Assembly (NCBI GenBank): GCA_013298545.1
Contig: JAAFIA010000031.1
Span: 1-50,032 of the forward strand
Source of the DNA: Bacteroidota bacterium
GTDB taxonomy: Bacteria; Bacteroidota; Bacteroidia; Palsa-965
DNA: 50,032 nt
Reading direction: 5' to 3'
Shown: piece after piece, positions 41,275 through 49,832 of the stretch
How positions within the stretch are numbered: the first letter of the stretch is position 1
Layout: each line of letters starts with the position of its first letter
Program-made: the position numbers and the translations under genes
The notes under the pieces: model-generated
Seen by the model: the letters and a program-made list of their open reading frames with translations, nothing else
Told to the model about the DNA's origin: nothing
Database searches by the model: none

Positions 41275-44052
41275 ATGGCAAACCAAAATCCAGAACAAAT
41301 AGCCCGTGATCACATTGATAAGCAATTGATTGACTGTGGTTGGATTATTCAGGATAAGTCGAAAATTAACTTGGCCGCCGGACTTGGTGTTGTGGTCAGA
41401 GAGTATCAGACCAATGTTGGGCCTGCCGATTATGTTTTGTTTGTGAATAAAAAACCAGTTGGAATTATTGAGGCTAAAAGAAGCGATGCTGGTATTGATT
41501 TGGTTATCGAAGTAGAAGAACAAGCAGCCGACTATGCATCGGCAAAACTCAAGTACTTAAACAACGACCAGCTTCCTTTCGTTTATGAAAGTACGGGTAT
41601 CGTAACTCGCTTTACAGATTACCGCGATCCCAAACCACGTTCGCGCAGTGTTTTTACGTTTCATCGTCCAGAAACTTTTGCAAAAATGGTCAAGGATGAC
41701 AAAACATTAAGAGCGCGCTTATTGGATTTACCGAAACTGCTTGAAGAAGGTTTAAGAGAGTGTCAGATAAAAGCAATTACGAAACTCGATACATCCTTCA
41801 AAGAAAACCGACCGAAAGCCTTGATTCAAATGGCTACGGGTTCTGGCAAAACATTTACAGCCATTACGTTTATTTACCGCTTACTCAAGTTTGCCAAAGC
41901 AAAACGGATTTTGTTTTTAGTCGATACCAAAAATCTTGGCGAGCAAGCTGAACAGGAGTTTATGGCTTTTGTACCCAATGACGATAATCGAAAATTTACA
42001 GAATTATACGGCGTAAATCGACTCAAATCTTCTTTTGTCCCGAATAACAGCCAAGTTTACATTTCAACCATTCAGCGTTTCTATTCGATTCTGAAAGGCG
42101 AAGAATTGGACGAAGCTGCCGAAGAAACCAATCCTGCTGAAATGAAGTGGGAAAAACGCGAGCCAGTTCCGGTTGCATACAACCACAACGTACCTATTGA
42201 GTTTTTTGACTTTGTTATTATTGACGAGTGCCACCGAAGCATTTACAATCTTTGGAGACAAGTCTTAGATTATTTCGATTCTTTTCTAATCGGTCTTACC
42301 GCAACACCCGATAACAGAACGTTTGGTTTCTTCAACCAAAATGTGGTGAGTGAATATACTCACGAACAAGCCGTTGCCGATGGCGTAAATGTGGGTTTCA
42401 ATGTGTACACCATTGAAACCGAAATCTCACAGCGAGGGAGCATTATTTGGAAAGGTGAATATGTAGATCACCGCGAAAAGTTAACGCGACAAAAAAGATG
42501 GGGGCAGTTAGACGAAGACAAAATGTATTCTGCTCGGCAATTGGATGAGGAAGTGGTTAATCCCAATCAAATACGCTTAATCATCAAAACATTTAAAGCA
42601 CATTTGCCCGAAATGTTTCCTGACCGAACAGATGAAAATGGTGTGTTTGAAGTTCCCAAGACCTTGATTTTTGCAAAGACCGATTCGCATGCAGATGACA
42701 TCATTCAACTTGTACGCGAAGAGTTTGGCGAAGAAAACCAGTTCTGTAAAAAAATTACATACAATGCTGAAGATCCCAAGGGAACATTAGCGAAATTCAG
42801 GAACGATTATTTTCCGCGAATTGCTGTAACCGTTGACATGATTGCTACCGGAACGGATGTTAAACCCTTGGAGTGTTTGCTCTTTATGCGCGATGTAAAA
42901 AGTTGCAATTACTTTGAGCAAATGAAAGGCCGCGGAACACGAACCATTGATTTGGATGCGCTGAAAAAAGTTACGCCAAGTGCCAAGTTTACCAAAGACC
43001 ATTTTGTGATTGTTGATGCCATTGGGGTAACCAAGAGTTTGAAAACCGATAGCCGTCCGTTAGAGAAAAAACCGGGTGTGCCCTTGAAAGATTTATTGGG
43101 GGCTATTGCCGTTGGTGTTAGGGACGAAGACTTGTTTACTTCTTTGGCCGGAAGGTTGGCCCGTTTGGCCCGACAAATAACCCAAAAAGAACGAGCAGTT
43201 TTTCAGGAAAAAGCAAATGGAAAAACGATTGAGCAGGTGGTCAACGAATTGCTGAATGCGTTTAATCCCGATACACTCGAAGAAATCCGCTATGCTGTGG
43301 AAACACAACATGCGGGCGATTCTCCGCACACCAAAGACGAAAAATACACGGAACTTACAGGCACATTGCAAGACAAGGCTGCTGCCGTGTTTAATGGCGA
43401 ACTGAATGCCTTTATTGAAAATGTCAGAAAAATTCATGCGCAGGTCATCGACCACATCAACCCCGATACGTTAGTGAACGTGGGTTGGGATAAAGACAAT
43501 ACCGAAAAGGCACAAACTTTAATTCAAGACTTTACGGCATGGATTGAAACCCACAAAGATGAAATTACGGCCTTGCAGATTTTTTACAGCCAACCTTACC
43601 GCAGACGGGAACTGACGTACAAAATGATTAAGGATGTGTATGAGTTGCTGAAAACCGAAAAACCGATGTTGGCTCCTTTGCATGTTTGGCGTGCATACGA
43701 ACAATTGGGACAATGCAACGGCACACCTAAAAATGAATTGATTGCTTTGGTCTCATTGATACGCAAAATAAGTGGCATTGATACCAACCTTACAGCTTTT
43801 GACAAAACGGTGGACAAAAACTTCCAAGATTGGGTATTTAGAAAACAAGCCGGAACCTTAAAGTTTACCGAAGAACAAATGCAATGGCTACGCATGATTA
43901 AAGAATATATAGCCAATAGTTTTCACATTGACCGCGATGATTTTGACTTAAGCCCTTTTATTGCCAATGGAGGCTTAACCAAAATGTGGAATTTGTTTGG
44001 AGAACAAACAGATGAACTTATTAACGAATTAAATGAGGCGTTAGTGGCGTAA
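41275..44052 (+). CDS. hsdR: Type I restriction enzyme, R subunit (HsdR)
   Basis: 925 residues. The N-terminal PD-(D/E)xK nuclease is visible as GPADYVLF (D52) and IIEAKR (E66, K68). A superfamily-2 translocase follows with Walker A ATGSGKT (187-193), Walker B-type DECH (317-320), the ATPD motif and the helicase C-terminal motif QMKGRGTR. A helical C-terminal region (about 680-925) probably docks to the methylase. The complex uses ATP to translocate unmodified DNA and cut it at a distance. It is the first gene of the operon; hsdS begins 1 nt after its stop. The gene order R-S-(two genes)-M is unusual. All catalytic motifs look intact. Confidence 0.96.
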   Translation: MANQNPEQIARDHIDKQLIDCGWIIQDKSKINLAAGLGVVVREYQTNVGPADYVLFVNKKPVGIIEAKRSDAGIDLVIEVEEQAADYASAKLKYLNNDQLPFVYESTGIVTRFTDYRDPKPRSRSVFTFHRPETFAKMVKDDKTLRARLLDLPKLLEEGLRECQIKAITKLDTSFKENRPKALIQMATGSGKTFTAITFIYRLLKFAKAKRILFLVDTKNLGEQAEQEFMAFVPNDDNRKFTELYGVNRLKSSFVPNNSQVYISTIQRFYSILKGEELDEAAEETNPAEMKWEKREPVPVAYNHNVPIEFFDFVIIDECHRSIYNLWRQVLDYFDSFLIGLTATPDNRTFGFFNQNVVSEYTHEQAVADGVNVGFNVYTIETEISQRGSIIWKGEYVDHREKLTRQKRWGQLDEDKMYSARQLDEEVVNPNQIRLIIKTFKAHLPEMFPDRTDENGVFEVPKTLIFAKTDSHADDIIQLVREEFGEENQFCKKITYNAEDPKGTLAKFRNDYFPRIAVTVDMIATGTDVKPLECLLFMRDVKSCNYFEQMKGRGTRTIDLDALKKVTPSAKFTKDHFVIVDAIGVTKSLKTDSRPLEKKPGVPLKDLLGAIAVGVRDEDLFTSLAGRLARLARQITQKERAVFQEKANGKTIEQVVNELLNAFNPDTLEEIRYAVETQHAGDSPHTKDEKYTELTGTLQDKAAAVFNGELNAFIENVRKIHAQVIDHINPDTLVNVGWDKDNTEKAQTLIQDFTAWIETHKDEITALQIFYSQPYRRRELTYKMIKDVYELLKTEKPMLAPLHVWRAYEQLGQCNGTPKNELIALVSLIRKISGIDTNLTAFDKTVDKNFQDWVFRKQAGTLKFTEEQMQWLRMIKEYIANSFHIDRDDFDLSPFIANGGLTKMWNLFGEQTDELINELNEALVA

Positions 44053-44053
44053 T

Positions 44054-46204
44054 ATGGATAAAGAATTCAATAAATATAAATTACCAGACAATTGGATTTG
44101 GGTAGAGCTAGGGGATATTCTTGAAACAACAAGCGGTGGAACGCCTAGCCGTGGTAGATCTGACTATTATAATGGAACAATTCCCTGGGTGAAATCGGGA
44201 GAATTAAATTATAATATCATTACAAAAACAGAAGAACAAATTACAGATGCTGCATTGCAAAGTTCAAGTGCAAAGTTGTTTCCTAAAGGAACAATGCTAA
44301 TCGCACTTTACGGTGCAACGGTTGGTCGATTAGCTTTTTTAGGAATTGATGCTTCAACAAATCAAGCGGTTTGCGGGATTTTCCAGAATAGTAATATCCA
44401 TATAAAATACATCTATTACTGCCTGATGAATCAATATTCATATTTGATTTCATTAAGTGCAGGCGGAGCACAACCAAATATCTCCCAAACTATCATAAAG
44501 AAAGTAAACATCCCCCTCCCCCCCCTCAACGAACAAAACCGCATTGTCGATAAACTAGATGAATTATTAAGCGAACTGGAAAAAGGCAAGGCGCAATTGC
44601 AAATTGCTTTGGAGCAGTTGAAGGTTTACAGGCAATCCATTTTGAAGCATGCTTTTGAGGGGAAGTTGACAGAAGAATGGAGAAGTAAACAAAAGAAACT
44701 GAAAACTCCTGATGAACTTGTGGCTGAAATAAAAGCATACAGAAAACAGCAATACGAAACACAACTAAAAGAATACAAAGCGGGGGAAATTAAAATAAAG
44801 CCAAAAGAGCCGAAAGAAATAATTCCTGTAACTGCTTCAGAAATTAAGGTATTACCTGAATTGCCTAATGGATGGACATATGTAAAAGTATCTTCACTTG
44901 GTGATATTGAAACCGGCACAACACCTTCAAAAGCTAAACCAGAATACTACGGTGATAAATATCCATTTTATAAACCCACAGAGTTAGATGCAGGGTTTAA
45001 TGTTAGAAAAGCAAAAGAATACTTATCAGAAAGCGGAATAAACCAAGCAAGGTTTCTCCCTGTAAATTCTATTCTTGTAACATCCATTGGTGCAACTATT
45101 GGTAAAACAGGAATCATTAGAGTTGCAGGAGCAAGCAATCAACAAATAAACGCAATTGTTCCACACGAAATATTTAATTCAAACTTTCTATATTTTCAAG
45201 CAGTTGGGCAGCATTTCCAAGACCAAATACAATCAAATGCTGTGGCAACTACACTTCCAATATTAAATAAGTCCAAATTTGAAAAACTTGTATTTGCAAT
45301 TTGTTCGCAAGAGGAACAGAACTTCATTGTTGATGGTATAGAATCCAAGTTTTCAAATATTGAAAAAATGGAAGAAACAATAGTTCAGAACATTGAAGTT
45401 TCGCATACTCTCAAACAAAGCCTGCTTCAAAAATCCTTCGAAGGAAAACTCGTTGAGCAAGACCCAAGAGATGAACCTGCAAGTGTATTGTTGGAAAGAA
45501 TTAGGGCGGAGCGGGAGGCGTATTTGAAGAATAACAAAACGAAGAAGAAAGTACTAAATCAACCTCTTGTTGAGTTTCCTAGAGCTATACCTGATATTGC
45601 AGCCACTGATTTGCATGCAGGTATCATATCCATGATTATTGATGCTCATGTTTGTAATGCAAAGTATAGCGGAAAACTCAATCATGTAAAGTGTGAAAAG
45701 ATTGCTGACTTGGTGGAACGAAAACTTGGTATTTCGCTTGGGCGAAAAGCAATGAAAGATGCAGCTGGTCCAGACGACTACCCTCACTTGAAAAAAGTGG
45801 AACACCGTGCCAAAATGATTGGTGCTTTTGCAACCGTACCATTAAAAATAGGGCATACATACAAGGCGATGAAAAATATGCCGAAATGTATTGAAAAGGC
45901 TCAAGTCGCATTATCTAAAACTGATTTGGAAAAGGTAAACGAATTAATCAATACGTTCCTACCTTTCGATCTTGAACATGCAGAATTGGTCGCTACAATC
46001 TATGCGGGATGGAATAATCTGTTGATAAAACAGCAAATTCCAACGGATGAAGAAATAGTATATGAATCCAGAGAAAACTGGTCAAAACGCAAGCTTACCA
46101 TTCCACGGGAGAACTTCTTCAAAACGTTGAACTGGATGAGAGCGCACCACTTTGTACCACAAGGTAAAGGGCAACTTGTCTTAAAAAACAATAAGCATTC
46201 GTGA
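44054..46204 (+). CDS. hsdS: Type I specificity subunit (HsdS) with C-terminal extension
   Basis: 716 residues, against about 400-450 for a usual HsdS. Two target-recognition domains start at LPDNWIWVELGDILETTSGG (about 10) and LPNGWTYVKVSSLGDIETG (about 272). Each is followed by the conserved helical spacer ending in QSILKHAFEGKL or QSLLQKSFEGKL. The first half also carries a long K/E-rich linker (about 212-260). The last 210 residues (about 507-716) are an additional helical, probably wHTH-like region (DLHAGIISMIIDAHV, PHLKKVEHRAKMIGAF, ENFFKTLNWMRAHHFVP) that I cannot name. The two TRDs set the bipartite recognition site. By eye, base composition here is more A+T-rich than in the housekeeping genes. 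Confidence 0.92.
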   Translation: MDKEFNKYKLPDNWIWVELGDILETTSGGTPSRGRSDYYNGTIPWVKSGELNYNIITKTEEQITDAALQSSSAKLFPKGTMLIALYGATVGRLAFLGIDASTNQAVCGIFQNSNIHIKYIYYCLMNQYSYLISLSAGGAQPNISQTIIKKVNIPLPPLNEQNRIVDKLDELLSELEKGKAQLQIALEQLKVYRQSILKHAFEGKLTEEWRSKQKKLKTPDELVAEIKAYRKQQYETQLKEYKAGEIKIKPKEPKEIIPVTASEIKVLPELPNGWTYVKVSSLGDIETGTTPSKAKPEYYGDKYPFYKPTELDAGFNVRKAKEYLSESGINQARFLPVNSILVTSIGATIGKTGIIRVAGASNQQINAIVPHEIFNSNFLYFQAVGQHFQDQIQSNAVATTLPILNKSKFEKLVFAICSQEEQNFIVDGIESKFSNIEKMEETIVQNIEVSHTLKQSLLQKSFEGKLVEQDPRDEPASVLLERIRAEREAYLKNNKTKKKVLNQPLVEFPRAIPDIAATDLHAGIISMIIDAHVCNAKYSGKLNHVKCEKIADLVERKLGISLGRKAMKDAAGPDDYPHLKKVEHRAKMIGAFATVPLKIGHTYKAMKNMPKCIEKAQVALSKTDLEKVNELINTFLPFDLEHAELVATIYAGWNNLLIKQQIPTDEEIVYESRENWSKRKLTIPRENFFKTLNWMRAHHFVPQGKGQLVLKNNKHS

Positions 46205-46852
46205 ATGAGTAAAAAAGCAGCCATACCCATAAAGAAGAAGGCCGTTGCAAAAAAGGCAATTGCCAAGAAGGCTGTGCCCCAAAAGAAGCAACTGACGATT
46301 ATGGTTTCTTCTACGGTGTATGGTGCACAATCTGACTTAAGGCAAATAAGCTCAATCCTTAGAGGATATGGCTATAAAGTGGTGATGTCAATGGAAGGGA
46401 CTGTATATGTTCCTATTGGTATTTCTAATGAAGATGCGTGTAAGCAAGCTGTTGTCGATTGTGATTTGTTTTTGGGGATAATCTTTCCGCGATATGGTTC
46501 TGGCATTACTCACAAAGAATTTGCTCAGGCATTGGCAATAGATAAACCAAGGTGGTTTATTTCCCATCAATACGTAACCTTTGCTCGTGATGTACTTAAG
46601 CAGTACATGTTCAGAGGAAAGAGGAGAAACAGAAAATTCAAGTTTAGAAAGACTGATGTGATGGACAAGGTTGATGTTATCCATATGTATAATGATGCAA
46701 TTCAAAATCATATAGCTTCCAGTATGCGTAAATCTCATTGGGCACAACCTTTTTTTAATACCTCTGATATTTTTCCTTTTCTAGACGAGCAATTCTCCAA
46801 CATGGAAAAGAGAATACAGGAATTAGAAGAATTCAAAAAGAAGAAAAAATGA
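46205..46852 (+). CDS. DUF4062-domain protein with lysine-rich N-terminal tail
   Basis: 215 residues. The first 28 contain 11 lysines in a K/A/P pattern (KKAVAKKAIAKKAVPQKK), like histone-H1-type DNA-binding tails. The DUF4062 Rossmann-like domain (about 29-125) has IMVSSTVYGAQSDL, CDLFLGIIFPRYGSGITHKEF and AIDKPRWFI. A helical C-terminal part (about 130-215) ends in a second lysine run. DUF4062 is related to TIR/nucleoside-processing Rossmann folds and occurs in signalling or conflict proteins; no activity is proven. The ATG follows the hsdS stop with no gap, and the last 4 nt overlap the next gene. It is therefore an integral member of the restriction operon. Confidence 0.82.
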   Translation: MSKKAAIPIKKKAVAKKAIAKKAVPQKKQLTIMVSSTVYGAQSDLRQISSILRGYGYKVVMSMEGTVYVPIGISNEDACKQAVVDCDLFLGIIFPRYGSGITHKEFAQALAIDKPRWFISHQYVTFARDVLKQYMFRGKRRNRKFKFRKTDVMDKVDVIHMYNDAIQNHIASSMRKSHWAQPFFNTSDIFPFLDEQFSNMEKRIQELEEFKKKKK

Positions 46853-48357
46853 CAGAAGAACAACTCATAAGAGACCTAAGAGAACAGGGCCAAAGCGAAC
46901 AGCTTGAATTCATAGAGTCTGTTCGCAAAGAAGATATAGCCAAAGTGCTGTGCAGTTTTTTAAATGGTCAAGGTGGCCGTGTTGTGGTTGGCATTTCTAG
47001 TCATGACATCGTTCAAGGTGTTGCCAATGCAGATGAGCATCTTAAGGCTTTAAAAATGTATTTGGTTTCTGCGATTGTTCCAGAAGCACCAGTTACCATA
47101 AGTATTGAGTTTTTTGACGGTAAGGATTTGATTATATTGAAAGTTTACGGCGGCTCTAAACAACCTTATTTATATGATGGTAGCATTTTCTATCGGCAAA
47201 ATGGCAAAACCGTAAAAGCCACTTCACAGCAAATTGCGCAACTGATTCACGATCGCCAAAAATCGGAAAAACATTGGGAGCGGCAGGCTGCTCTTGGTGT
47301 TGATTGGGAAGATTTAGACCAAAAACTGATTCTTTCAGTCATTAAAGAATCGAGAGCTAACCACAGGGGAAATTTTGAAGGAAATAACGTTATCGATTTT
47401 CTTTCGCACTACGGCTTGTATCAAAATGGTTTGTTTACCAATGCCTGCGTGGTGCTATTTGCAAAGAATCCTGCAAAGTTTTTACCACAAGTTCGGGTTC
47501 GCTTAACGGAATATAGCGAAGGAAAAACGGACAATGCTTTATTAAGAGACGAAGTATTTGAAGGGAATCTTTTCGCCATCCATGACAATCTGGAGCGCTA
47601 TATTCAAAACTTGGGTGTCAGAAGTGTATTTGATAAGAATCAATGGAAAAGAATTGATTTTAAATTTCCACCTAAAGCCTTGCAGGAAGGAGTGATTAAT
47701 GCTTTAATGCATAGAGATTACAGCACTCATTCAAGTGGCGTAGCAATAAGCATTTACTCCGACCGTTTTGTGATTTCCAATAGTGGTCATTTGCCAACTG
47801 GCTGGAAAGGAACAGACTTAAAGAAAGACCACCGTTCTGTGCCCAATAATCCTGATATCGCACATATTGTTTTTTTAAGAGGTTTAATTGACAAGCTTGG
47901 GCGGGGGACAATAAAAATAGTTGAGTTATGTAGAGGGGAAGGCTTAAAAAGTCCTGAATGGAAACCTGATATTGATGGTATTACCCTTACGTTTTATGGC
48001 CCTAAGGCATTAGCTGCGAAGAAAGATGTTTCTAAAAATGATGGTGTAAGTGATGGTGTAAGTGATGGTGTAAGTGATGGTGTAAATAAACTTGTAAATG
48101 ATGGTGTAAATGATGGTCTAATTGATGGTGTAAGCGATGGTGTAAAAGTAGAGATAATCAAGATTGTGGGACTGATAATGGCTAAAGAAGGTGCAAATGC
48201 GCTCGATATAGCAACTAAAAGGGGGAAATCAAAGCCTACCATAGAAAGATACCTAAGAACAGCCAAAGAAGTGGGAGTAATAGAGTTTAAAGGAGCTCCT
48301 AAAACGGGCGGATATTATTTATCACAGAAGATGAAAAAACAAATAAAGAAGAAATGA
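46849..48357 (+). CDS. AlbA_2 (Schlafen-like) / GHKL-ATPase regulator-like protein with DGV repeats
   Basis: 502 residues. The N-terminal AlbA_2 domain (about 10-130) has QLEFIES and FLNGQGGRVVVGIS. A central linker leads to an HATPase_c_4-type region (about 240-385) with N-box-like EGVINALMHRDY and ISNSGHLPTG. A repeat linker (398-433) has nine in-register tetrapeptides (DGVS/DGVN). A C-terminal winged-helix-like region (about 440-495, KRGKSKPTIERYLRTAKEVG) follows. Proteins of this plan are often called putative transcriptional regulators or RecG-like ATPases, and their real role is unclear. It is coupled by ATGA overlaps to both the DUF4062 gene and hsdM. Confidence 0.87.
   Translation: MTEEQLIRDLREQGQSEQLEFIESVRKEDIAKVLCSFLNGQGGRVVVGISSHDIVQGVANADEHLKALKMYLVSAIVPEAPVTISIEFFDGKDLIILKVYGGSKQPYLYDGSIFYRQNGKTVKATSQQIAQLIHDRQKSEKHWERQAALGVDWEDLDQKLILSVIKESRANHRGNFEGNNVIDFLSHYGLYQNGLFTNACVVLFAKNPAKFLPQVRVRLTEYSEGKTDNALLRDEVFEGNLFAIHDNLERYIQNLGVRSVFDKNQWKRIDFKFPPKALQEGVINALMHRDYSTHSSGVAISIYSDRFVISNSGHLPTGWKGTDLKKDHRSVPNNPDIAHIVFLRGLIDKLGRGTIKIVELCRGEGLKSPEWKPDIDGITLTFYGPKALAAKKDVSKNDGVSDGVSDGVSDGVNKLVNDGVNDGLIDGVSDGVKVEIIKIVGLIMAKEGANALDIATKRGKSKPTIERYLRTAKEVGVIEFKGAPKTGGYYLSQKMKKQIKKK
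48040..48147 (+). repeat. In-frame 12-bp tandem repeat tract within the AlbA_2 gene
   Basis: Nine consecutive 12-bp units in perfect register are based on GATGGTGTAAGT/AAT and encode DGVS or DGVN. One unit (48088-48099, KLVN) is degenerate. The unit length is a multiple of three, so slippage would change linker length without a frameshift. Confidence 0.93.
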
Positions 48358-49832
48358 GCAGCACAATCGTTCAAAAAATTTGGAATTTCTGTAACACGCT
48401 GCGCGATGATGGTGTGAGTTATGGCGATTATTTAGAGCAGTTAACGTATTTACTGTTTCTTAAAATGGCTGATGAATATTCCAAGCCGCCCCATAAGCGA
48501 AAGGATATCAATATTCCGGCAGAAATGAATTGGGAATCGCTTACCGAAAAAAGCGGTGATGAATTGGATCGCCATTACAATAAAATTCTTCGTTCACTCG
48601 GAAAGGAAAAAGGTATTCTCGGTCAGATATTCACGAAGAGTCAAAACAAAATTCAAGACCCTGCCAAATTGTATAAACTCATTCAGTTGATTGATGCTGA
48701 AAACTGGGTAGGCATGGGTGTAAAAGACAAAGGTGATATTTATGAAGGTATTCTGAAAAAGAATGCAGAAGATACCAAAAGCGGCGCTGGCCAGTATTTC
48801 ACACCAAGAGAATTGATTAGCGCTATGGTAGAATGTGTTCGCCCCGAACCCAAGAAAACCATTGCCGATCCGGCTTGTGGAACAGGAGGCTTCTTTTTAG
48901 GTGCTTATGATTTTCTCGCTAGTCAAGATTTAGATAAATCGGAAAGAGAGTTTTTGAAATCAACTACCTTTTACGGGAATGAGATTGTTGCCAATACCAG
49001 AAGACTATGTTTAATGAATCTTTTCCTTCATGGCATTGGCGACATCAGTGCAAAAGAAAGTTTTATTGCTCCAGATGACGCTTTGCTTTCTACGCCTAAA
49101 ACAACATTTGATTATGTTTTGGCTAATCCGCCATTTGGTAAGAAAAGCAGCATGACCATCACCAACGAAGATGGTGAAGAAGAAAAAGACGATTTAATTT
49201 ACAACCGTCAAGACTTCATTGTTACCACGAGCAATAAGCAGTTGAACTTCTTACAGCACATCATGTCCATGCTCAATACAACCGGAAAAGCGGCTGTAGT
49301 ATTGCCAGATAATGTATTGTTTGAAGGTGGTGTTGGCGAGAAAGTAAGACAGGCATTGCTTCAAAAAACAGATTTACATACCATTTTAAGATTGCCCACC
49401 GGAATATTTTATGCACACGGTGTAAAAGCAAACGTATTGTTTTTTGATGGTAAGCCAGCAAATAAAAAAGCATGGACAAAAGAAATTTGGGTTTATGATT
49501 ACAGAACCAATGTTCATCACACACTCAAAAAAAATCCACTGAATGTAGAAAGTCTTCGGGATTTTATCAGCTGCTACAATCCCAAAAATCGCCATAAGCG
49601 AAAAGAAACTTGGTCTGAATCTAATCCAGATGGTCGTTGGCGAAAATTTGAATATGAGGAGATAATTGCCCGAGACAAAACGTCGTTAGATATTTCGTGG
49701 TTAAAAGATAATTCCTTAGCAGATTTGGATAACCTGCCAGACCCAGATGTATTGGCTGCTGAAATCATTGAAAATTTGGAAGCTGGATTGGAAAGTTTTA
49801 AAACCATTATAGCGGCATTGAATCATAAGTAA
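48354..49832 (+). CDS. hsdM: Type I DNA methyltransferase, M subunit (HsdM)
   Basis: 492 residues. The helical HsdM N-terminal domain (about 5-135; SYGDYLEQLTYLLFLKMADE) is followed by an N6-adenine methyltransferase domain (about 145-430). The SAM-binding motif I is ADPACGTGGF (D172-G179) and the catalytic motif IV is NPPF (258-261). A C-terminal helical tail docks HsdS. It protects the host by methylating adenine in the site set by HsdS and forms the core of the R2M2S complex. Its ATG overlaps the end of the AlbA_2 gene by 4 nt, separating it from hsdS by two genes. Confidence 0.96.
   Translation: MSSTIVQKIWNFCNTLRDDGVSYGDYLEQLTYLLFLKMADEYSKPPHKRKDINIPAEMNWESLTEKSGDELDRHYNKILRSLGKEKGILGQIFTKSQNKIQDPAKLYKLIQLIDAENWVGMGVKDKGDIYEGILKKNAEDTKSGAGQYFTPRELISAMVECVRPEPKKTIADPACGTGGFFLGAYDFLASQDLDKSEREFLKSTTFYGNEIVANTRRLCLMNLFLHGIGDISAKESFIAPDDALLSTPKTTFDYVLANPPFGKKSSMTITNEDGEEEKDDLIYNRQDFIVTTSNKQLNFLQHIMSMLNTTGKAAVVLPDNVLFEGGVGEKVRQALLQKTDLHTILRLPTGIFYAHGVKANVLFFDGKPANKKAWTKEIWVYDYRTNVHHTLKKNPLNVESLRDFISCYNPKNRHKRKETWSESNPDGRWRKFEYEEIIARDKTSLDISWLKDNSLADLDNLPDPDVLAAEIIENLEAGLESFKTIIAALNHK

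What the first reader, a model, noticed from the sequence alone, without database searches (positions are those of the whole stretch)
46205..48357. DUF4062 plus AlbA_2/GHKL-ATPase pair embedded and coupled inside a type I restriction operon
Seen: hsdS stop and DUF4062 start are adjacent with no gap, and DUF4062/AlbA_2 and AlbA_2/hsdM overlap by ATGA. The order R-S-X-Y-M is not the usual R-M-S or M-S-R. Known: accessory genes occur in type I loci, DUF4062 is a TIR-like Rossmann family, and AlbA_2 is Schlafen-related. Inference: the pair may form a sensor/effector module whose output depends on or reports the state of the restriction complex. This is the strongest candidate for a little-described defence arrangement here.
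Basis: partly seen in the sequence, partly recalled or inferred. Interest (0 to 1): 0.66.

Follow-up and report, generated by a model that had tools for sequence, protein, structure and literature searches.

The report
Two-gene TIR-like defence cassette inside hsd
Two genes lodged inside a bacterial restriction operon form a recurring two-gene cassette, probably a phage-triggered suicide switch that destroys NAD+, and the same operon slot in other bacteria carries other known anti-phage systems.

Summary
In detail: hsdR, hsdS, DUF4062 (D, 46205-46852), AlbA_2/GHKL (A, 46849-48357) and hsdM lie on one strand with junctions from +1 to -4 nt.
D and A are a real pair. All 34 distinct D genes that I found (E <= 1e-10 to the window's D) are followed by an A gene, 26 of 34 with the same 4-nt overlap.
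A 2026 preprint (PMC13174449) shows DUF4062 to be a TIR-like NADase in the antiphage system Swarozyc. D keeps the catalytic Glu: E105 is invariant in 26 aligned rows and aligns with KpSwz E97.
The pair does not need hsd: 12 of 34 pairs sit in or next to hsd genes, 22 do not. On the A tree the hsd label needs 8 changes, about as many as when shuffled.
Conversely, the place before hsdM in this hsd family holds other cargo elsewhere: Septu, RhuM, Fic, GmrSD-AlbA_2, MBL.
Best reading: a mobile two-gene variant of DUF4062 defence, carried as cargo in an hsd operon. Whether it senses the Hsd complex is untested. Embedding itself is a known pattern.

The parts
46205..46852 (+). D: DUF4062 TIR-like protein, 215 aa, predicted NADase effector; invariant E105 encoded at 46517-46519
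46849..48357 (+). A: SLFN_AlbA_2 + HATPase_c_4 (GHKL) + winged HTH, 502 aa, predicted partner/sensor of D
46894..47220 (+). AlbA_2 (Schlafen) domain of A; active-site positions read Q15, E20, S51 (SLFN13 has E205, E210, D248)
47737..47994 (+). HATPase_c_4 (GHKL-type ATP-binding) domain of A; N284, G351 and G353 (the first and last two lie just outside the Pfam stretch or within it) are invariant in 21 aligned rows
48039..48145 (+). 12-bp tandem repeat, 8.9 copies, giving (DGVS)n-like repeats in the linker between the ATPase and the winged HTH of A
41275..44052 (+). hsdR, restriction subunit with EcoEI_R_C, 925 aa (host operon)
44054..46204 (+). hsdS, specificity subunit with two Methylase_S stretches and a C-terminal extension, 716 aa (host operon)
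48354..49832 (+). hsdM, N6-adenine methyltransferase, 492 aa (host operon)

Best explanation
D and A form an autonomous two-gene antiphage module that travels as a cassette and here occupies the cargo slot between hsdS and hsdM. Shown here: the pair is conserved with a co-translation layout, D has a predicted TIR/NDT-type fold with the catalytic Glu invariant, A keeps the conserved Asn and Gly residues of its GHKL domain, and the same slot carries other known defence systems in relatives. Inferred: A binds D and holds it inactive. A phage cue sensed through A's AlbA_2/GHKL/winged-HTH parts changes the ATP state of A and lets D assemble and hydrolyse NAD+, stopping the infected cell (abortive infection). 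In this operon the module would act as a second line behind restriction, expressed with hsd. No direct contact with Hsd is required by the evidence.
For: D followed by A in 34 of 34 distinct D genes, 26 of 34 with a 4-nt overlap. Of 30 A loci fetched from a 247-genome search, the 11 that score 403 or more on the A profile have D beside them in 10 cases and the 19 that score 335 or less in none (the profile was made from D-linked A proteins, so part of this split is built in). The D profile matches KpSwz (10wc_A) at E 9.6e-5 with E105 opposite the Ala of the E97A construct. E105 invariant in 26 rows. The D model (pLDDT 85.7) matches DNPH1 Z 13.1, SPARTA TIR Z 11.8 and SARM1 TIR Z 10.9. NADase and antiphage activity of DUF4062 is published (PMC13174449). 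DUF4062 fused to HATPase_c_4 in one protein (L038, L147, L149, L150, L151). A fused to a NACHT domain beside D (L039, L052, L053). The place before hsdM holds Septu PtuA+PtuB twice, RhuM, Fic, GmrSD-AlbA_2 and MBL proteins in other loci of the family.
Against: No activity was measured. D lacks the HTH/winged AUX domain that senses the portal in Swarozyc, so the trigger cannot be carried over. DNPH1-type nucleotide hydrolases match D as well as TIR domains do, so the substrate could be another N-glycoside. D-A contact is inferred from synteny and fusions only. In 8 of 17 D-linked representatives A keeps all three Schlafen acids, and so do the window's nearest relatives L029, L064 and L065 (sequences printed), so A may be a second effector there.
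Confidence: 0.62

Rival explanations
1. Restriction guardian, as PrrC does for EcoprrI: D-A is kept silent by the Hsd complex and fires when a phage inhibits it, so its output reports the state of restriction.
For: Tight coupling inside the operon; 12 of 34 pairs in or next to hsd genes; an hsd-type hit in the short flanks of 10 of 34 D stretches against 2 of 20 D-less A stretches (no test run, one D gene counted twice, L029 not included); PrrC/PARIS precedent (PMC12707154, passages).
Against: 22 of 34 pairs were not found at hsd; the label is scattered on the A tree (8 changes, shuffled mean 8.6); pairs sit at more than one kind of hsd locus (window type and L034/L038 type); genome G696 carries a stand-alone pair whose A is 72% identical (L065, flanked by a SprB-repeat protein and a glycosidase) and a separate hsd locus of the window's family with other cargo (L129).
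Confidence: 0.15
2. Signal-type system (Thoeris-like logic, recalled): D makes an ADP-ribose-derived signal and A is the effector, either as a Schlafen RNase or through its other domains.
For: A is longer and variable and carries NACHT fusions; proteins with Schlafen RNase + minimal histidine kinase + wHTH are proposed as backup effectors in BREX loci (PMC12839542, passages); all three Schlafen acids are kept in 8 of 17 D-linked representatives.
Against: In this copy two of three Schlafen acids are gone (Q15, S51); the first two acids are both kept in 11 of 17 D-linked against 13 of 14 unlinked representatives (Fisher p 0.09, a trend only), while D's Glu is invariant. Published DUF4062 products are ADP-ribose and nicotinamide (PMC13174449).
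Confidence: 0.15
3. Ordinary regulator pair or chance insertion: A regulates transcription of the operon through its winged HTH and D is an accessory with no defence role.
For: A has a winged HTH and a GHKL domain; no PADLOC or NCBIfam model matches D.
Against: Same pair outside hsd in many genomes; the slot otherwise filled by known defence systems; patchy occurrence, 18 of 395 genomes of the phylum sample and 1 of 12 in the own order, which is the own genome.
Confidence: 0.08

Closest known systems
Swarozyc (KpSwz), DUF4062 TIR-like NADase, PMC13174449
   Same: DUF4062 domain, predicted TIR/NDT fold, catalytic Glu position; defence context
   Different: KpSwz is one protein with a C-terminal HTH/winged AUX domain that binds the phage portal; D is a 215-aa protein with a separate AlbA_2-GHKL-wHTH partner gene. 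[quoted passage not shown] its supplement was not seen, so this pair may be among them.
Bacterial Schlafen + minimal histidine kinase + wHTH proteins of BREX loci (PMC12839542; Taboada et al. 2025 preprint, cited there, not held)
   Same: Domain order of A
   Different: Described as RNase backup effectors in BREX; DUF4062 is not mentioned in the main text of that paper (0 occurrences). A here belongs to a D-linked subfamily and has a degraded nuclease site in this copy.
Embedded cargo of type I loci: C. jejuni rlo/mlo ORFs (PMC5183652), PrrC in EcoprrI (PMC12707154), DarTG2 in EPEC (PMC12255303)
   Same: Extra genes between hsd genes; mlo ORFs sit in the same place, between hsdS and hsdM
   Different: The cargo here is a DUF4062/AlbA_2-GHKL pair. 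PrrC is controlled by the Hsd protein; nothing shows this for D-A.
DUF4062-NACHT proteins of eukaryotes (TEP1, NPHP3, NWD1; PMC13174449)
   Same: L039, L052 and L053 place DUF4062 next to an A-NACHT fusion
   Different: Split over two genes, with AlbA_2 and GHKL domains in between; the window's A has no NACHT.

Membership tests
Swarozyc / DUF4062 TIR-like NADase | DUF4062 domain | tested here: met
   PF13271 E 9.8e-11, over the curated cut-off
Swarozyc / DUF4062 TIR-like NADase | Catalytic Glu at the KpSwz E97 position | tested here: met
   E105 invariant in 26 rows, opposite the mutated position of 10wc_A (column counted by hand)
Swarozyc / DUF4062 TIR-like NADase | TIR/NDT-type fold | tested here: met
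   VIA-align Z 10.9-13.1 over 118-126 residues to SARM1 TIR, SPARTA TIR and DNPH1; predicted model, not a solved structure
Swarozyc / DUF4062 TIR-like NADase | C-terminal HTH/winged AUX domain in the same protein | tested here: not met
   D is 215 aa; Pfam finds DUF4062 at 32-109 only; the match to KpSwz covers profile positions 6-107 only
Swarozyc / DUF4062 TIR-like NADase | NAD+ hydrolysis and abortive infection | not testable with these tools
   needs the bench
Bacterial Schlafen RNase | AlbA_2 domain | tested here: met
   PF04326 E 5e-15; SLFN matches by profile and by fold
Bacterial Schlafen RNase | Three acidic active-site residues (E205, E210, D248 of SLFN13) | tested here: not met
   window A reads Q15, E20, S51 in the columns fixed by 5yd0
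Type I locus with embedded cargo (rlo/mlo kind) | Foreign ORFs between hsd genes of an otherwise complete locus | tested here: met
   R, S and M all present with their domains; cargo differs among relatives of the same hsdM family
PrrC-type restriction guardian | Linked to an hsd locus as a rule | tested here: not met
   22 of 34 pairs were not found in or next to hsd genes, eight of them on short or cut contigs
PrrC-type restriction guardian | Silenced by Hsd, triggered by Hsd inhibition | not testable with these tools
   needs the bench

The most novel reading that the evidence does not exclude
D-A is a separate, still unnamed two-gene defence system in which a GHKL ATPase with a reworked Schlafen domain gates a TIR-like NADase, and the same ATPase platform takes interchangeable parts: DUF4062 in cis (fusions), DUF4062 in trans (the pair) or a NACHT sensor (long A). 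In hsd operons it has been wired to the restriction complex, so that blocking restriction releases NAD+ destruction.
Probability: 0.17. Interest if true: 0.78.

Novelty: new variant of a known kind. Interest (0 to 1): 0.55.

Why it matters
It gives the DUF4062 NADase family a second, two-gene architecture with a defined partner, so the question of what switches DUF4062 on can be tested outside portal sensing. It shows one type I operon family acting as a holder for exchangeable defence modules. It offers D-less and D-linked AlbA_2-GHKL proteins as a natural comparison for when a Schlafen domain is an RNase and when it is only a sensor or scaffold.

Tried and rejected
Rejected: incidental linkage (34 of 34 adjacency); strict dependence on hsd (tree and stand-alone pairs). 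Weakened: A as an active Schlafen RNase in this copy. My first reading of the third Schlafen position was one column off; the 5yd0 alignment set it at position 51 and repeats the count. The D-linked versus unlinked contrast is only a trend: 11 of 17 against 13 of 14 keep both Glu positions (p 0.09), all three 8 of 17 against 10 of 14 (p 0.27), after thinning at 70% identity. The thinning works against intact rows in one place: the window stands for its cluster, whose other members L029, L064 and L065 keep all three acids. One unlinked row, L075, belongs to the D-linked subfamily by score and has no D upstream. Rows dropped: L085 and L088 (gap at the site), L032_11 (not preceded by D). The plasmid partner named 'Fic family protein' (L054) has AlbA_2 (below cut-off), HATPase_c_4 and a Fic-like C-terminal domain, and no Fic domain was listed. 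D has matches in 2 of 72,556 plasmid records and in none of 50,697 phage records. The viral-contig scan with the D alignment could not run. The search for related loci in genome contigs gave one relative (L029). KpSwz did not appear among the 50 rows shown of either fold search (that PDB copy ends April 2026). No complex could be modelled. The Swarozyc supplement (its operon figure) was not available. I looked for prior reports of this pair with the ten searches and saw none, but most subscription papers and preprints are not held.

hsd linkage: searches used the window's R, S and M only and missed the HsdR of L034, which Pfam found. So I repeated the check on the 22 'not at hsd' stretches with a wider query set: 21 of 22 have no hsd-type hit; L032 has S and M homologues on the other strand, about 5 to 9 kb from D. 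Eight large flanking proteins from six of these stretches are not hsd subunits by Pfam. Eight of the 22 lie on short contigs or are cut near the pair (L031, L039, L042, L044, L045, L049, L052, L068). Of the 10 pairs that I labelled 'between hsd genes', L035 is cut after A and shows hsdM on one side only; it matches L034.

Slot accounting: 26 hsdM relatives in 26 of 395 genomes: 5 with D-A before M (G000, G727, G608, G631, G517), 10 with other cargo (L128, L129, L130, L131, L132, L133, L135, L136, L137, L143; in L130 and L131 no hsdS was recognised), 2 with S directly before M (L119, L134), 9 unclear (no S found, cut contig, other order, or my ORF caller missed M: L138-L142, L144, L145, G612, G675). 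L029 and L033 come from other searches and are not in this count.

Full report
WHAT IS THERE. The five genes lie head to tail on the + strand with junctions of 1 nt (R/S), 0 nt (S/D), a 4-nt overlap (D/A) and a 4-nt overlap (A/M). PADLOC has no match for D; the best for A is a pAgo model (PDLC02394, E 1.1e-18). The contig stops at 50032.

THE PAIR IS REAL. Searching 395 genomes of the phylum and 395 of the class with D gave 18 and 9 genomes with matches at E <= 1e-10, the own genome and one other in both; only the own genome of 12 in the order has it. Together with L029 these are 34 distinct D genes (two of them, in L049 and L050, split over two ORFs). In 34 of 34 the next gene downstream is an A homologue (cut by the contig end in some, such as L031, L035 and L050), in 26 of 34 with the 4-nt overlap. 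Both plasmid records with a D show a similar layout: a protein with AlbA_2 and HATPase_c_4 follows D (the AlbA_2 match is below cut-off in the Acinetobacter one). The reverse search agrees: of 30 A loci fetched (55 of 247 genomes have matches), A proteins scoring 403 or more have D in 10 of 11 and those scoring 335 or less in 0 of 19. The profile was made from D-linked A proteins, so part of the split is built in, but it marks a D-linked subfamily within a large family of AlbA_2-GHKL proteins.

WHAT D DOES. A 2026 preprint (PMC13174449; I read summary, introduction, results, discussion and figure legends) shows that DUF4062 is a TIR-like NADase; Klebsiella Swarozyc needs E97, depletes NAD+ on infection and is switched on by the phage portal through a C-terminal winged-HTH domain. 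The window's D profile finds that very protein in the PDB set (10wc_A, E 9.6e-5), with E105 opposite the Ala of the E97A construct (I counted the column by hand). T102, E105, Y162 and W179 are invariant in 26 aligned D proteins. The predicted structure (26-row alignment, mean pLDDT 85.7) aligns with DNPH1 (Z 13.1, 2.8 A, 124 residues), SPARTA TIR-APAZ (Z 11.8) and SARM1 TIR (Z 10.9). D lacks the AUX domain, so its switch must lie elsewhere, and A is the obvious candidate.

WHAT A MAY DO. N284, G351 and G353, which I take for the GHKL N-box and a glycine box (names recalled), are invariant in 21 rows. The AlbA_2 part matches Schlafens by profile and fold. SLFN13 needs E205 and E210, and D248 completes its active site (PMC5862951, passages). 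In the columns fixed by 5yd0 the window reads Q15, E20, S51, so this copy is unlikely to be a Schlafen nuclease; its nearest relatives L029, L064 and L065 keep acids at all three (read from the print). Over thinned rows the D-linked group keeps the first two acids in 11 of 17 and the unlinked group in 13 of 14, p 0.09: suggestive only. Fusions tie the parts together: DUF4062-HATPase_c_4 in one protein in L038, L147 and L149, in L148 by a full-length match to the L038 protein (70%), and in the more distant L150 and L151. In L146 (the L038 locus), L147, L148 and L149 this fusion too sits beside hsdM genes, between two of them in L146-L148. In L039, L052 and L053 A is extended by a NACHT domain (and FGE-sulfatase in L052 and L053) next to D, the arrangement one would expect of a STAND sensor over a TIR-like effector. 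BREX loci carry proteins of A's domain order as proposed backup RNases (PMC12839542, passages).

THE HSD SLOT. Ten of 34 pairs lie between hsd genes (window, L029, L033, L064, L066, L069 and L070 in S-D-A-M order; L034, L035 and L038 in another type with M before D; L035 is cut after A) and two beside them (L046, L050). The other 22 do not: a wider query set finds hsd-type genes in only one of these stretches, L032, on the other strand, and eight of the 22 are short or cut near the pair. In short flanks 10 of 34 D stretches have an hsd-type hit against 2 of 20 unlinked A stretches (no test run). On a tree of 31 A proteins (three too short were left out) the 'between hsd genes' label needs 8 changes (bootstrap 7-9, shuffled mean 8.6), so the pair has entered or left hsd loci several times. 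In the other direction, hsdM relatives of the window in 26 of 395 genomes show what else fills the place before hsdM: Septu PtuA+PtuB in L128 (same genus as the window's genome) and in L143, RhuM in L130 and L137 (fragment in L136), Fic in L131, a GmrSD-AlbA_2 fusion in L132, MBL proteins matching LmuA/Avs1a models in L135, DUF6615 in L129, a protein with a weak, below-cut-off Y1_Tnp match in L133, or nothing in L119 and L134. Genome G696 has both a stand-alone pair with an A 72% identical to the window's (L065; its large neighbours are a SprB-repeat protein and a glycosidase) and an hsd locus of the window's family with other cargo (L129). The hsd operon is thus a holder for exchangeable modules, and D-A is one of them.

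KNOWN OR NEW. Intervening ORFs between hsdR/hsdS (rlo) and hsdS/hsdM (mlo) are described for C. jejuni (PMC5183652, passages), PrrC and PARIS as RM guardians (PMC12707154, passages), DarTG2 between hsdS and hsdR and the phrase guilt-by-embedding (PMC12255303, passages). New here, as far as my searches reach, are the strict D-A pairing, its split and fused forms, and its repeated use of the hsdS-hsdM slot. The Swarozyc preprint mentions operons with diverse enzymes in a figure I could not see, so priority on the pair is not claimed.

VERDICT. Observation confirmed; module confirmed; TIR-like NADase effector likely; sensing of the Hsd state possible but not favoured. Steps shown: gene layout, pairing, predicted fold, catalytic residue, slot exchange. 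Steps inferred: D-A contact, A as sensor or lock, NAD+ loss, abortive infection.

Noticed in passing
window 48039-48145: 12-bp tandem repeat (8.9 copies) coding DGVS-like repeats in the linker of A. Divergent A proteins have other 4-residue repeats at the same place (EGAI, TSEV, TPQA, DRAI, TEGV), and some unlinked A proteins too. In-frame copy-number change would tune linker length.
   Followed up: partly
window 46205-46290: D has a Lys/Ala-rich N-terminal tail of about 29 residues, low confidence in the model, shared with L029 only among the 17 rows.
   Followed up: no
window 45560-46204: HsdS has a C-terminal extension of about 200 residues after the second specificity domain; two PADLOC specificity models reach into it (PDLC03088, PDLC03196).
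   Followed up: no
L132:5715-7844: GmrSD_N and SLFN_AlbA_2 in one 710-aa protein in the same hsdS-hsdM slot, with a HATPase_c_4 protein (AlbA_2 below cut-off) between hsdR and hsdS of the same locus.
   Followed up: partly
L038:6211-8121: An AAA_13 protein (the Pfam family of PrrC/RloC, recalled) follows the D-A pair in the same hsd locus, which also holds the DUF4062-HATPase_c_4 fusion: three possible suicide modules in one restriction locus.
   Followed up: no
L029:4705-6732 and L064:5423-8065: The hsdR-hsdS gap is also a cargo site: a HATPase_c_3 protein in L029, and DUF5131 plus DUF3644 proteins and one without a Pfam match in L064.
   Followed up: partly
L075:1407-2798: An A protein of the D-linked subfamily with no D gene upstream in the fetched 1.4 kb, perhaps a locus that lost D.
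   Followed up: no
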